Origin: Carex sylvatica
Taxonomy: Eukaryota > Streptophyta > Magnoliopsida > Poales > Cyperaceae
Direction of reading: 5' to 3'
Assembly: GCA_964058845.1 (NCBI GenBank)
Contig: CAXKVR010000851.1
Span: forward strand, 1-17,048
Length of the DNA stretch: 17,048 bases
Positions 3,672 to 14,386 of the stretch are shown piece by piece (the stretch's first letter is position 1; the number at the start of each line of letters is the position of its first letter). The position numbers and the translations under genes were made by a program. The notes under the pieces were generated by a model. That model saw only the letters and a list, made by a program, of their open reading frames with translations. It did no database searches and was not told the DNA's origin.

Positions 3672-4400
3672 ATGACTTAGAATGTCAGGGGTTGAATGAC
3701 AGGAAAAAAAAGATTGGCTGTGCGCCAAGTAGTTTTGATAGAAAGGCCCGATTTAATTACACTACAAGAAACTAAGCTCCATCAGATCGTCCGAGCAATT
3801 TTCAGAGAAATATGCGGAAGGCGCATCAATCAATATATTTTCTTGTCGGCACTAGGGACAAGAGGGGGAATCCTCATTGCATGGAAGCAGAGCACTCACA
3901 CACTGCTAAGTCACACAATGGGTCAATACACACTGACAGTGTCGCTACAGAGAAACACTGACCTAAGTGAATGAGACTTCACAGCTGTATATGGTCTAAC
4001 GGCAGACCAACACCAAGACCAATTCTATGAAGAACTGAGACAAGCAAAACCACTCAACGGAAAATCATGGCTAATCGGAGGGGACTTCAATGTCACGGCA
4101 GCGATGCAAGATCAAAATATTAATGACAATATATGGAGACACACGGTTTCATTTGCATCACTAATCTCAAAATTGGAATTATTAAACCTAAACCTAACTG
4201 GAGGACAATTCACTTGGTCCAATGACCATCACTCACCGCATCTAGCACAGCTCGATCGATTTCTGCTCTCTTCAGAATGAAACAGTAGGTTCCCCAACTC
4301 AAATAAAAGAAAGACGACAAACACGTCGTTAGACCATACTCCTTTGATCTTGATAGCGCAGACCAAATTCAAGAAAATGAGATTTTTCCGATGAGAAAAT
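3672..4400 (+). pseudogene. LINE ORF2: APE-type endonuclease domain, broken
   Basis: This is the N-terminal domain of ORF2, which in an active LINE nicks the target DNA to prime reverse transcription. The opening TWNVRG-type motif is damaged (TAG at 3678-3680 in place of the Trp codon, then a frame slip at GLNDRKK). The main frame then runs from 3696: PDLITLQETK holds the metal-binding Glu, GGDFN lies at about 4077-4091, QFTWSN and QLDRFL follow at about 4207-4264, and a SLDHTP segment (about 4328-4345) carries the catalytic His. In-frame TGA codons at 3972-3974, 4278-4280 and 4392-4394 stop it. All these pieces share one frame with the reverse transcriptase that follows, so this is one gene broken mainly by nonsense changes. 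Confidence 0.85.
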
Positions 4401-6298
4401 TTCTGGTTGAAGATACTCGAATTTAAAGAGCTGGTTACTAAAATCTGGACTGAAATGGCAACAACTCAGTCACCACAACACCTGAGTCATAAGCTAAAAA
4501 TTCTACAGCAAGCAATTAAGGAATGGGCCAATGAAAGAATAGGCACAGTCAAGTTTCAAATCATGGCATGTAGGGAATTCTTACAATGGATAGACAGATG
4601 TAAAGAATTAAGGCAAATCATAAGATTAGAAAGGCTAATCACGGCGGTTATAAAGAAAAGGCATGTGATATTGTCAGTAATTGAAGAACACATATGGCGG
4701 CAAAGGGCTAGAACAATGTGGGATTTTCAAGGTGATTGGGGTACAAAATACTTCCATGCTATCGTATCAGGGGCAAAAATGGCAAATCTAATTGCACAAA
4801 TTGAACATGAAGGAAATATTTACTCAGACTAGAACACTAAAGCGAAAGCTTTCTTTGAATTCTTCATAGAATTAATGGGCACCTCACCAAAGCAACTGCT
4901 GAACTTGAACTGAAATAGCCTATACCCTTCGCAACTCAATCTGCAGCAGCTAGATGAACGGGTAACAGCCATTGAAATAGAGAAGGCAATCATGCAATGG
5001 CCAAATAACAAAGGCCCGGGTCCGGACAGATTTTCGGGTGAGTTTTACAAACAATTTGCTTCACTATTGCTGCCGGACATATATGAGGTATTTAAGCATT
5101 TGATGGAAACAGGAGGTCAGATTCATTCGCTAAATGTTTCGTATATAGTACTAATACCAAAAAAAGATGTGCACTAAAACTGGAGAACTATAGACCAATC
5201 AGCTTGCTACACGAAATGCAAAAAATCTTCTCAAAAATGCTTGCAAATCCGGTTGCAAGAGCACATGCCGACACTTCTTTCAGATGTGCAGTCAGGATTC
5301 CAAAAAGGCAGGCAGATGACTGAAAGTTATGTATATGTGCAACAAATCTTACACCATTGCAAGAAGCAAAAGATACCGCTGGCACTCCTGAAACTTGACA
5401 TTATAAAGGCCTTTGATACGATTAGTTGGGAATTTGTATTAAGGGTAATGAAAGAATTGGGATTTCCAAATGCTTGGTTATAGTGGATACAAAATTTGGT
5501 TCTCCATGGATCATCTCAGGTGCTAATAAATGGTCAACTTGGCAAGAGATTGTCTTTGAGAAGAGGCGTTCGTCAAGGCGACCTATTGTACCTGAGCTTT
5601 TCATAATAGCGATAGACTTCTTGGCCCGTTACTTGCAAAAACTCAAAGAGGCAGGCACAATCCGATTGCCATCTGCAAGCATGCGACCGTGCTTGCTATA
5701 TGCGGATGATGCATTATTCCTAAAACCGAATTCAAACCAGGCAATGGCAGTCAAATTAGCCCTCTCGGTATTCCAACACATATCGGGGCTTGCAATTAAC
5801 CTCGATAAATCTGAATTGATGCTAACCAGTGCTGACAACCAACAAGCAATAAACCTAGAGTGCATCTTTGGCTGCCGGCTCAAACCATTTCCATTCAATT
5901 ATTTGGAAATTCCTCTCCCTGACAAGCAACTGCCAAGGACAGCATATATCCCATTAATCGAAAAATTGAACAAGAAACTCGTAGGATGGGCAGCAAACTT
6001 TTTATCAATAGCAGGGCGCTTGGTGCTGCTAAATTTCATCCTTTCATCCTTACCAATACACTATATGTCAGTACTGGCACTACCGGCATGGGTTTTGCTA
6101 AAGATAGATAGGATTCGAAAGAGGTTTTTGTGGAAAGAAGCATCTGAACAAGCAAAAGGGTACCATTTGGTTGACTGGGAAATGGTATGCCAACCAAAAT
6201 CAATAGGCGGATTGGGAATTCAAGATATGAATATTTTCAATCAAGCATTGCTCCTAAAATGGGTATGGTGGTGGTTAAAGGGAGAAGATAAAATCTGA
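4401..6298 (+). pseudogene. LINE ORF2: linker and reverse transcriptase domain, broken
   Basis: After a linker with EEHIWRQRARTMWDFQGDWG and TKYFHA (about 4684-4760), the reverse transcriptase begins: GPGPDRFSGEFYK (about 5013-5050), LNVSYIVLIPKK, ENYRPISLL (about 5185-5211), SGFQKGR, LLKLDIIKAFD with the first catalytic Asp (about 5388-5418), RGVRQGD (about 5563-5583), and LLYADDALFL with the catalytic YADD at 5699-5710, then GLAINLDKSEL. TAG at 4830-4832, TGA at 4911-4913 and TAG at 5481-5483 interrupt it. A one-base slip near 5168-5172 is undone near 5249, and another slip near 5582 moves the reading frame for the rest of the domain (to TGA at 6296-6298). All core catalytic residues are present, but no continuous protein could be made. 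Confidence 0.92.
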
Positions 6299-8255: not shown

Positions 8256-8320
8256 TCCAATATAAAATATCCGAGTACAGTTGGGCACTGTAGATGCCAT
8301 GTAAACATTAGTAGTTGGTG

Positions 8321-8919
8321 TAGGGGTGTAAACGGAGCCGGATTATCAGTGGATATCCGCTCCGTATTTTAGAATTATCCGAATCTAGTTCGGATAATTT
8401 TTGAATACGGATTCGGATAATTTTTGGATATCCATAGAAGATCCGGATACAAAGTTCTAAATAGAGCGGATATCCAGACTATCCGAAATTCAATAATTTC
8501 CGGATACGGATTCGGAGTCCTAAACAAAGCGGATATCCGAACTCTGAACCCATGTACTACACCACAACTTCTTTTGTTACCATTCCTTTATTTGATATAT
8601 ATATTATATGAATATATTATCTCTCATCTCTCCATCTACTTATAATTATCATTAATATTTATATTTAATTTTTTAATTAATATTTGTATCTTAGAAATTT
8701 ATATATCTTAATTATCCGACCATTATTCGTTTTATATCCGTATTTGAATCCGTATCCGTAAACTATCCGTTCCGTATCCGTATCCGTTAAAGACGAATTT
8801 GGTTTTGAATTTTAATATCTGTTTACTATTCGTATCTGTATTCGTATCCGCTCATTATCCGACAGATACGAATATGGTATGAGCATTATCGCTCCGTATC
8901 CGCTCCGTTTACACCCCTA
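8321..8919. mobile_element. hAT MITE with perfect 18-bp TIR and 8-bp TSD
   Basis: The element starts TAGGGGTGTAAACGGAGC (8321-8338) and ends with its exact reverse complement (8902-8919). Both sides carry AGTTGGTG (8313-8320 and 8920-8927). An 8-bp TSD with a TAGGGGTG terminus is diagnostic of the hAT superfamily. The 599-bp body is packed with CGGATATCC, CCGTATCCG and TCCGAAT-type words in both orientations, and contains no transposase, so it depended on another element. It belongs to the same family as 1268-1600, but its ends and TSD are intact, so it is younger. Confidence 0.93.
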
Positions 8920-8927
8920 AGTTGGTG

Positions 8928-12586: not shown

Positions 12587-12673
12587 CAACAAATCCCGAT
12601 ATTTTTAAAAATACAAAAAAAATAAAAACAAATTATTAAGAATAATCGAGTTGTTGAAAAAAAATTTAAAATG

Positions 12674-12800
12674 TTCAAACCGCTTTAAAATTTGGCGGTC
12701 CGAAATTTTAATTCCTAACCACTCTGAAATTCGGTGGTCCGAGATTTTTTTTTATTTCCAAACCGTCTAGAAATTCGGCAGTCCGAAATTTTTTTTTTTT
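12674..12800 (+). repeat. Three subterminal ~42-bp repeats in the left arm
   Basis: Three adjoining copies of an AACCG(C/T)...AAATT.GGCGGTCCGA-type unit start near 12678, 12717 and 12760, each followed by a T-run. AACCGC and GCGGTCC within a unit are partly self-complementary. The right arm holds two comparable units at 14221-14310. These are good candidates for transposase-binding sites. Confidence 0.7.
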
Positions 12801-12814
12801 TTTGCAAATCAAAT

Positions 12815-13125
12815 TTTCACCTCTGGTTAACATAGCAAAACACCTTCAAAAATAGTGAAAATTAACCGACATGCAGTCTTGACATCGCAGAACATGAATG
12901 TGAAGTTTCATACAAAATCTCCGAACAGGTCGTGAGATATTGACTCTCAAAAATTATCCGAATTGCTGAATATTTCATTCTGAGCCCAACTTTGCACATC
13001 TGGTTAACATAGCAAAACACCTTCAAAAATCGTAAAAATTGACCGACATATAGTATTGACATCGTAGAACAGGAATGTGAAGTTTCATACAAAATCTCTG
13101 AACAGGTCGTGAGATATCGGCTCTC
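12815..13125 (-). repeat. 177-bp satellite, reversed array (~1.8 units)
   Basis: Read on the minus strand, one full unit spans 13125-12949 (starting GAGAGCC) and a partial unit 12948 to about 12815, breaking off after CCAGAGGTG. The spacing of the GAGAG(C/T)C landmarks is exactly 177 bp. The full unit shares CTACGATG and AGATGTGC variants with the first forward unit (13174-13350), so these two may descend from a single inverted duplication. Confidence 0.9.
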
Positions 13126-13173
13126 AAAATTTTTCACAACTGCTGAAACTTCACAGTCCTGTTGGAGATTTTT

Positions 13174-14192
13174 GAGAGCCGATATCTCATGGCCTGTTCG
13201 AAGATTTTGTATGAAACTTCACATTCCTGTTCTACGATGTCAAGACTGCATGTCGGTCAATTTTCACGATTTTTTAAGGTGTTTTGCTATGTTAACCAGA
13301 TGTGCAAAGTTGGGCTCAGAATGAAATATTCAGCAGTTCGGGCAGTTTTTGAGAGCCAATATCTCACGACCTGTTAGGAGATTTTGTATGAAACTTCACA
13401 TTCCTGTTCTGCGATGTCAAGACTGCATGTCGATCAATTTTCATGATTTTTGAAGGTGTTTTGCTATGTTAACCAGAGGTGCAAAGTTGGGCTCATAATG
13501 AAATATTCAGCAGTTCGGATAATTTTTGAGAGCCGATATCTCACGACCTGTTCGGAGATTTTGTATGAAACTTCACATTCCTGTTCTCCGATGTCAAGAC
13601 TGCATGTCGATCAATTTTCACGATTTTTGAAGGTGTTTTATTATGTTAACCAGAGGTGCAAAGTTGGGCTCAGAATGAAATATTCAGCAGTTCGGGCAAT
13701 TTTTGAGAGCCGATATCTCACGACCTGTTCGGAGATTTTGTATGAAACTTCACATTCCTGTTCTGCGATGTCAAGACTGCATGTCGGTCAATTTTCATGA
13801 TTTTTGAAGGTGTTTTGCTATGTTAACCAGAGGTGCAAAGTTGGGCTCAGAATGAAATATTCAGCAGTTTGGATAATTTTTGAGAGCCGATATCTCACGA
13901 CCTGTTCGGAAATTTTTTTATGAAACTTCACATTCCTGTTCTCCGATGTCAAGATTACATGTCGATCAATTTTCACGATTTTTGAAGGTGTTTTATTATG
14001 TTAACCAGATGTGCAAAGTTGGACTCATAATGAAATATTCAGCAGTTGTGAAAATTTTTGAGAGCCGATATCTCACGACCTGTTCGAAGTTTTTGTATGA
14101 AACTTCACATTCTTGTTCTGTGATGTCAAGACTGCATGTCGGTCAATTTTCACGATTTTTAAAAGTGTTTTGCTATGTTACCTAGAGGTGCA
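13174..14192 (+). repeat. 177-bp satellite, forward array (~5.8 units)
   Basis: GAGAGCC landmarks lie at 13174, 13351, 13528, 13705, 13882 and 14060, so four steps are 177 bp and one is 178. Each unit contains ATATCTCA, GTATGAAACTTCACATTC, GATGTCAAGA, GGTGTTTT and AATGAAATATTCAGCAG in order. The last unit stops at GAGGTGCAA, the same phase where the reversed array stops. Because 177 is a multiple of three, some frames stay open across units (for example 13450-13800), but this follows from the period and is not evidence of a gene. Confidence 0.93.
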
Positions 14193-14386
14193 ATTTTTTT
14201 TTTTTTTTTTAAAATATTCTCGGACCGCCAAATTTCTGGGCAGTTCGGAAAAAAAATAAAACATAAAAAATCTAAGACCGCGGAATTTTGAGGCGGTTTG
14301 GATATTTTTAAATTTTTTTCAACAATCCAGTTATTCTTAATAATTTTTTTTTTTTTTGGTATTTTTAAAAATATCGGCAACAAATC

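What the first reader, a model, noticed from the sequence alone, without database searches (positions are those of the whole stretch)
12587..14386. Foldback-like plant element that carries its own 177-bp satellite
Directly seen: exact 9-bp TSD, about 105-bp inverted ends, and an interior made only of opposed tandem arrays of a 177-bp unit. Both arrays stop at the same phase (after AGAGGTG) before entering the T-rich border of the terminal arms. Foldback elements in animals are Mutator relatives with tandem-repeat TIRs and 9-bp TSDs; a compact plant counterpart with a nucleosome-length satellite unit would be a plausible route for seeding satellite DNA.
Basis: partly seen in the sequence, partly recalled or inferred. 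Interest (0 to 1): 0.82.

Follow-up and report, generated by a model that had tools for sequence, protein, structure and literature searches.

The report
Satellite-armed foldback transposon from a sedge
This is one copy of a family of jumping DNA hairpins in a plant, built from two mirror-image stacks of a 177-letter repeat; larger related elements that encode the jumping enzyme carry a similar repeat inside them, which suggests a concrete route by which such hairpins and scattered repeat arrays arise.

Summary
Window 12596-14377 is a 1,782-bp element with an exact 9-bp target-site duplication (TSD), similar inverted ends of about 110 bp, and two opposed arrays of a 177-bp unit around a short rearranged centre. 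It belongs to a dispersed family: of 25 main-family loci read with flanks, 17 have both ends, 10 of them with exact in-register 9-bp TSDs and 7 matching 7-9 of 9 (3 of these after a one-base shift); full units per copy run from 1 to 14.

The class is fixed: 9.5- and 10.5-kb elements with nearly the same tips and exact 9-bp TSDs carry Mutator-type (MULE) transposase sequence. At 20 near-identical loci of the larger type a related 176-bp array (0-8 full units) lies beside the transposase gene. The foldback arm is best read as an end-plus-array deletion derivative of the transposase-side half of such a MULE, duplicated head-to-head. A second foldback (C31) has different junctions, so this probably happened at least twice.

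Foldback MULEs and a satellite-bearing foldback (Tetris) are known. New here: a transposase-bearing relative with the repeat in its body, the inferred route, and a probable sedge host. Seeding of free satellite arrays is not shown.

The parts
12587..12595 (.). left copy of the 9-bp target-site duplication CAACAAATC
12596..12809 (+). left terminal arm: inverted end (outer ~110 bp, tip CCGATATTTTTAAAAATA) and 44-bp subrepeats; aligns to position 207 with the transposase-side end of the C526 MULE
12810..13147 (-). left array of the 177-bp unit (one full, one partial; BLAST units end at 13129, TRF array at 13147)
13130..13167 (.). centre: rearranged unit sequence joining the opposed arrays; same junction motif in 20 of the 24 main-family loci scanned for it, in both orientations
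   Evidence: fold
13168..14193 (+). right array of the 177-bp unit (five full, one partial)
14194..14377 (-). right terminal arm, inverted copy of the left
14378..14386 (.). right copy of the target-site duplication CAACAAATC

Best explanation
The element is a non-autonomous Mutator-like (MULE) foldback transposon. Shown: MULE-type 9-bp TSD and inverted ends, no transposase in it, a dispersed TSD-flanked family with varying unit numbers, and longer elements with nearly the same tips that carry MULE transposase sequence and a related 176-bp repeat. Inferred: (1) an ancestral satellite-carrying MULE lost its transposase region, fusing its transposase-side end (about 207 bp) to its internal array in the original orientation; (2) that half-element was duplicated head-to-head, by template switching at a few shared bases between unit copies, giving a palindrome with an end on each side; (3) a MULE transposase acting in trans spread it, leaving 9-bp TSDs; (4) unequal exchange or slippage in the arrays changes unit number. 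A second foldback with different junctions suggests that steps 1-2 happened at least twice.
For: TSDs: of 16 main-family foldbacks with both ends, 9/9 in register in 9, 8/9 in 3, 7/9 in 1, and after a one-base shift 9/9 in 2 and 8/9 in 1; L068 9/9. Cross-pair control: 5 of 272 reach 6 or more in register; with 16 offsets allowed 8 of 272 reach 7 or 8 and none 9. Unit numbers 1-14. C526 (9.5 kb, TSD TCAAGCTTT) and C60 (10,545 bp, TSD GCAATGTTC) share the tip. The C157 copy has PF10551 63.4 bits, PF03108 30 bits and SWIM 29 bits, all over cut-off, and is 99.5% identical to C60 over 7,252 bp. C526 is 89.6% identical to C157 over 3,448 bp spanning that gene. Unit orientation relative to the transposase-side end is the same in MULE and foldback. 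28 of 32 foldback ends are closer to C526's transposase-side than to its other end (p = 3e-6, ends not independent). One junction motif is found in 20 of 24 main-family loci scanned. Array length 0-8 full units at 20 loci that are 99-100% identical over 351 bp beside the array. C31 foldback differs in tip, centre and array border.
Against: The direct parent is not in hand: main-family units differ by about 22% from those of C60, C157 and C526. C60's two ends are 99.1% identical and do not tell the sides apart (11 of 32, p = 0.40). By my count, 12 of 32 ends are closer to C157's end than to C526's, so no single MULE lineage fits every copy. C526's transposase pieces are broken and only SWIM passes its Pfam cut-off there. 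No transposition, expression or empty site was seen; both flanks are single-copy. Eight of 25 main-family loci lack a recognised end.
Confidence: 0.8

Rival explanations
1. The 177-bp unit is a host satellite (for example centromeric) that MULEs captured, so the element is a passive carrier of host satellite DNA.
For: Unit length is nucleosome-like, and a sedge satellite of 172 bp (Tyba) is reported linked to a Helitron (review passages). Some 176-bp arrays (C942, C336, C107, C56:20 kb, C34, C703:4.3 kb) had no match to the neighbouring MULE region among the 40 loci scored.
Against: 32 of 36 unit loci visible are tied to an element end. In the MULEs the array sits at a fixed place beside the transposase gene in 20 near-identical loci. 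No long free array was seen in the listed matches.
Confidence: 0.12
2. The foldback form came first and the MULEs acquired their internal array from it.
For: Main-family units and MULE units are separate groups (support 100/99), so sequence alone does not give the direction.
Against: The foldback lacks coding sequence; both foldback types (main family and C31) have different end-array junctions but the same array polarity as the MULE half, which is what repeated derivation from MULEs predicts.
Confidence: 0.05
3. The two foldback types share one old origin and C31's junctions were later rearranged.
For: Same overall plan and polarity; centres do get deleted or changed (L050, L054, L041).
Against: C31 differs at the centre and, identically on both arms, at the array border, so both junctions would have to be replaced on both arms; its units are about 19% different from the main family.
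Confidence: 0.15
4. The opposed arrays are an assembly artefact.
For: Some copies sit at contig ends (L043, L057), as expected where assembly struggles.
Against: The 16 foldbacks each have their own flanking sequence, with matching TSDs and varying unit numbers; no N run in the 10 loci checked.
Confidence: 0.02

Closest known systems
Tetris, foldback of Drosophila virilis (PMC4079207; abstract, passages and section 19 seen)
   Same: Non-autonomous foldback with 8-10 bp TSDs whose arms hold a variable number of ~220-bp tandem repeats; unit-number change by unequal exchange proposed.
   Different: In Tetris the transposase source was not found, the repeat shares 37 bp with the terminal domain, and longer free satellite arrays are shown. 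Here a transposase-bearing relative carries the repeat, the unit shows no similarity to the end beyond chance, and free arrays are not shown.
Tm1, Mutator/foldback family of root-knot nematodes (PMC3169594; passages seen)
   Same: 9-bp TSDs, tandem-repeat arms of variable length, non-autonomous forms plus an element with a MULE transposase.
   Different: Its repeat is about 14 bp and lies in the ends of all forms; here it is 176-177 bp and lies in the body of the transposase-bearing element.
MuTAnT (Medicago) and FARE (Arabidopsis), plant foldback MULEs (PMC4486113 passages; the FARE paper itself not seen)
   Same: Plant MULEs with foldback structure; MuTAnT has a mudrA-like relative.
   Different: MuTAnT arms are short modules and it targets TA repeats; no satellite-length array was mentioned in the passages seen.
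MULEs carrying a plant mobile domain (PMC5418596 passages) and Abermu MULEs with an opposite-strand ORF (PMC9168764 outline and passages)
   Same: Captured PMD gene or a second, opposite gene in a MULE.
   Different: PMD-MULEs there are fusions with the transposase; here the PMD gene is separate and convergent. No tandem array was mentioned ('tandem' 0 occurrences in the Abermu text).
Tyba satellite of Rhynchospora sedges, partly linked to a Helitron (review passages)
   Same: A sedge-family satellite of similar unit length linked to a mobile element.
   Different: Different transposon class; sequence relation to Tyba was not tested.

Membership tests
Mutator-like elements (MULE) | 9-bp (7-12) target-site duplication | tested here: met
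   exact in the window copy; 16 further copies 7-9 of 9, 9 of them exact in register
Mutator-like elements (MULE) | terminal inverted repeats shared with an element encoding a MULE transposase | tested here: met
   C60, C157 and C526 ends; PF10551, PF03108 and SWIM on C157
Mutator-like elements (MULE) | own transposase gene | tested here: not met
   none in 12596-14377 (ORF list of the window: no ORF of 120 aa or more there); hence non-autonomous
Mutator-like elements (MULE) | mobilised by a MULE transposase | not testable with these tools
   needs an assay
Foldback elements | long inverted arms of tandem repeats that snap back, little or no unique loop | tested here: met
Tetris-type foldback | repeat unit partly derived from the terminal domain | tested here: not met
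   best score reached by 211 of 300 and 101 of 300 shuffles
Tetris-type foldback | longer free satellite arrays of the same unit | tested here: inconclusive
   32 of 36 visible loci tied to an end; C1, C858 not read, C82, C884 ends not checked; context of six arrays unknown
Holocentromeric satellite (Tyba-like) | sequence relation to Tyba or association with CENH3 | not tested
   no Tyba sequence or ChIP data at hand; the paper sought is not held

The most novel reading that the evidence does not exclude
The internal array itself is what turns these MULEs into foldbacks: its tandem copies supply the short matches for head-to-head template switching, so satellite-carrying MULEs keep producing palindromic offspring that scatter nucleosome-length arrays across a (probably holocentric) sedge genome, as ready-made seeds for dispersed, even centromeric, satellite DNA.
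Probability: 0.2. Interest if true: 0.85.

Novelty: new variant of a known kind. Interest (0 to 1): 0.6.

Why it matters
How foldback elements arise, and how satellite repeats become dispersed, are old questions; for Tetris the transposase source was not found. Here one genome holds transposase-bearing MULEs with an internal 176-bp array, array lengths of 0-8 full units at 20 loci that are 99-100% identical beside the array, and two foldback types whose arms look like halves of such MULEs. That makes the route testable. The host is probably a sedge, a family in which a transposon-linked satellite (Tyba with a Helitron) is already discussed.

Tried and rejected
Unit derived from the terminal repeat, as in Tetris: not supported. 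Unit as coding sequence: one frame of the 177-bp unit is open, but the MULE version is 176 bp and would shift frame; not pursued. Empty site: both flanks are single-copy, so none was found. Arm-specific evolution of units: within an element units are more alike than between elements (15 of 18 elements, p = 0.0004), but opposite arms are no more different than the same arm (14 elements, p = 0.14), so only weak homogenisation is claimed. L005, L041, L050, L054 and L065, whose centre orientation could not be set, were left out of that analysis, and L068 came later. Host by a PPR gene: uninformative (28-41% identity among the 120 of 2,101 hits listed). Host by phytochrome: no match in the held assembly. 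Host by the ABC transporter gene in L039: 94% unnamed, 84% Rhynchospora tenuis, 72% Juncus effusus, so a sedge is inferred. Tyba comparison: not possible.

Register choices: the left end of L042 was moved by one base from the pattern hit after seeing the flanks, and the ends of L065 were placed with the help of its TSD.

Full report
What is there. Window 12596-14377 is bounded by an exact 9-bp duplication, CAACAAATC, and begins CCGATATTTTTAAAAATA with the reverse complement at its other end. Two terminal arms of 214 and 184 bp enclose a minus-strand array (12810-13147) and a plus-strand array (13168-14193) of a 177-bp unit, joined by rearranged unit sequence (38 bp between the BLAST units). 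Both flanks are single-copy in the held genome. The centre folds into a long hairpin (-188.8 kcal/mol, 100 shuffles -39.6, sd 4.2).

A family. Searches of the window's own genome (G000, 64 Mb in 950 contigs) gave 40 matches to the end (256 candidates, 40 scored) and 259 unit matches (206 candidates, 40 scored). I read 25 main-family loci with flanks: the window, L002, L003, L005, L039-L058 and L068. Each has at least one end; 17 have both (16, and L068). TSDs of the 16: 9/9 in register in 9; 8/9 in 3; 7/9 in 1; after a one-base shift 9/9 in 2 and 8/9 in 1. L068 is 9/9. In the cross-pair control, which also includes C526, 5 of 272 pairs reach 6 or more in register, and with 16 offsets allowed 8 of 272 reach 7 or 8 and none 9. 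Full units per copy with both ends run from 1 (L003, L050) to 14 (L068: 3 and 11). Eight of the 25 lack a recognised end: contig end (L043, L057), or no end found in the stretch read (L002, L049, L051, L053, L054, L055). The 10 of these and other loci checked have no N run.

The transposase-bearing relatives. C526:30474-39949 has the tip CCGACATTTTT and TSD TCAAGCTTT on both sides, one unit 79% identical to the window's, and is 89.6% identical to C157 over 3,448 bp spanning the transposase gene; its own ORF pieces are broken, and only SWIM passes a Pfam cut-off there. C60:685796-696340 (10,545 bp) has TSD GCAATGTTC on both sides. C60 and C157 are 99.5% identical over 7,252 bp and carry a 665-aa ORF, a 280-aa ORF, a convergent gene with a plant mobile domain, and 4.2 copies of a 176-bp repeat between the two genes. 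Pfam, run on the C157 copy, gives PF10551 (63.4 bits, cut-off 27.6), PF03108 (30, cut-off 25), SWIM (29, cut-off 19.6) and PMD PF10536 (72.2, cut-off 34.9). The left end of the C157 element was not found in the stretches read.

Array length varies fast. The DNA beside the array is 99-100% identical over 351 bp at 20 loci (70 candidates, 40 scored). Counting full-length rows in the (truncated) list, these have 0 (C265, C48), 1 (C86), 2 (C645, C473, C221, C138, C15), 3 (C157, C321, C60, C238, C179), 4 (C575, C282, C56), 5 (C158), 6 (C499, C506) and 8 (C201) full units, each with one terminal partial unit. Whether any copy is active was not tested.

How the foldback probably formed. Read from the transposase-side end inwards, the units lie in the same orientation in MULE and foldback. 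The window's left arm aligns with C526's transposase-side end up to position 207, next to the array. Of 32 foldback ends (16 copies), 28 are closer to that end than to C526's other end (p = 3e-6, but ends are not independent); C60's two ends, 99.1% identical, do not tell the sides apart (11 of 32, p = 0.40), and by my count 12 of the 32 are closer to C157's end than to C526's. One asymmetric centre motif is found in 20 of the 24 main-family loci scanned, 11 in one and 9 in the other orientation; L045, L053, L055 and L057 have a shorter spacer, and L005, L041, L050 and L054 lack the motif. By eye the junction shares a few bases with both unit stretches it joins, which fits one founding inverted duplication by template switching. 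These steps are inference: main-family units differ by about 22% from those of the MULEs in hand (16 of 94 main-family units used), so the direct parent is not identified.

A second foldback. L065 (C31:84700-87100) has the same plan and polarity but a different tip, TSD TAACATCTA (ends placed with its help), units about 19% different from the main family, a different palindromic centre, and on both arms a different array border with a shared (TG)n spacer. I take it as an independent origin (about 0.85).

Unit evolution. Among 94 full units of 20 oriented loci the mean difference is 6.3-6.4% within and 7.4-7.5% between elements; it is lower within in 15 of 18 elements with two or more units (p = 0.0004). 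Opposite arms are as alike as the same arm. This is weak homogenisation.

Free satellite? Of 36 distinct loci visible in the list, 32 are tied to an element end (25 read; C618, C149, C94:159 kb, C240, C9, C99 and C128 by an adjacent end match), C82 and C884 show opposed arrays without a check of ends, and C1 and C858 were not read. In one search arrays at C942, C336, C107, C56:20 kb, C34 and C703:4.3 kb had no match to the neighbouring MULE region among the 40 loci scored; their context is open. So seeding is neither shown nor excluded.

Host. The transposase's best named relative is from Carex rostrata (75% over 59% of the query; unnamed ones reach 79%), and a flanking ABC transporter matches Rhynchospora tenuis at 84% and Juncus effusus at 72%. 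I infer a sedge; holocentric chromosomes are then likely from general knowledge of the family. The held assembly may be partial, as no phytochrome domain was found.

Known and new. Foldback MULEs are known in plants (MuTAnT, FARE; passages) and nematodes, there with a transposase-bearing form (Tm1); a satellite-bearing foldback is known in Drosophila (Tetris); PMD-carrying MULEs in grasses and Amborella; a sedge satellite linked to a Helitron. In the listings of searches I saw no paper on this combination; the library holds open-licence papers only and few were opened. I therefore call it a new variant of a known kind.

Noticed in passing
window 8313-8927: Another inverted-repeat element, 8321-8919, tips TAGGGGTGTAAACGGAGC on both sides, with an exact 8-bp duplication AGTTGGTG; looks like a hAT-type MITE (8-bp TSD, class recalled).
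   Followed up: partly
window 4395-6298: Broken reverse-transcriptase-like ORFs (YADD motif by eye) of a probable LINE; no family search run.
   Followed up: no
G000, one search list: At least 150 MULE domain matches (305 candidates, 150 scored) in 64 Mb, with groups of equal-scoring matches in 665-, 900- and about 716-aa frames: several recent bursts.
   Followed up: partly
L062 8800-9951; L060 7757-8067: The MULE also carries a 246-bp tandem array (4.7 copies in the stretch read) near its PMD-side end and 30/60-bp repeats near its transposase-side end: a multi-satellite carrier.
   Followed up: partly
L046 2412-2544 (C157:194911-195043): A foldback copy lies 131 bp from the end of a MULE that carries the 176-bp array.
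   Followed up: no
L053 3615; L055 3951: Two copies lose their right half within 5 bp of the same unit position (107 and 102): a hotspot, chance or an assembly effect.
   Followed up: no
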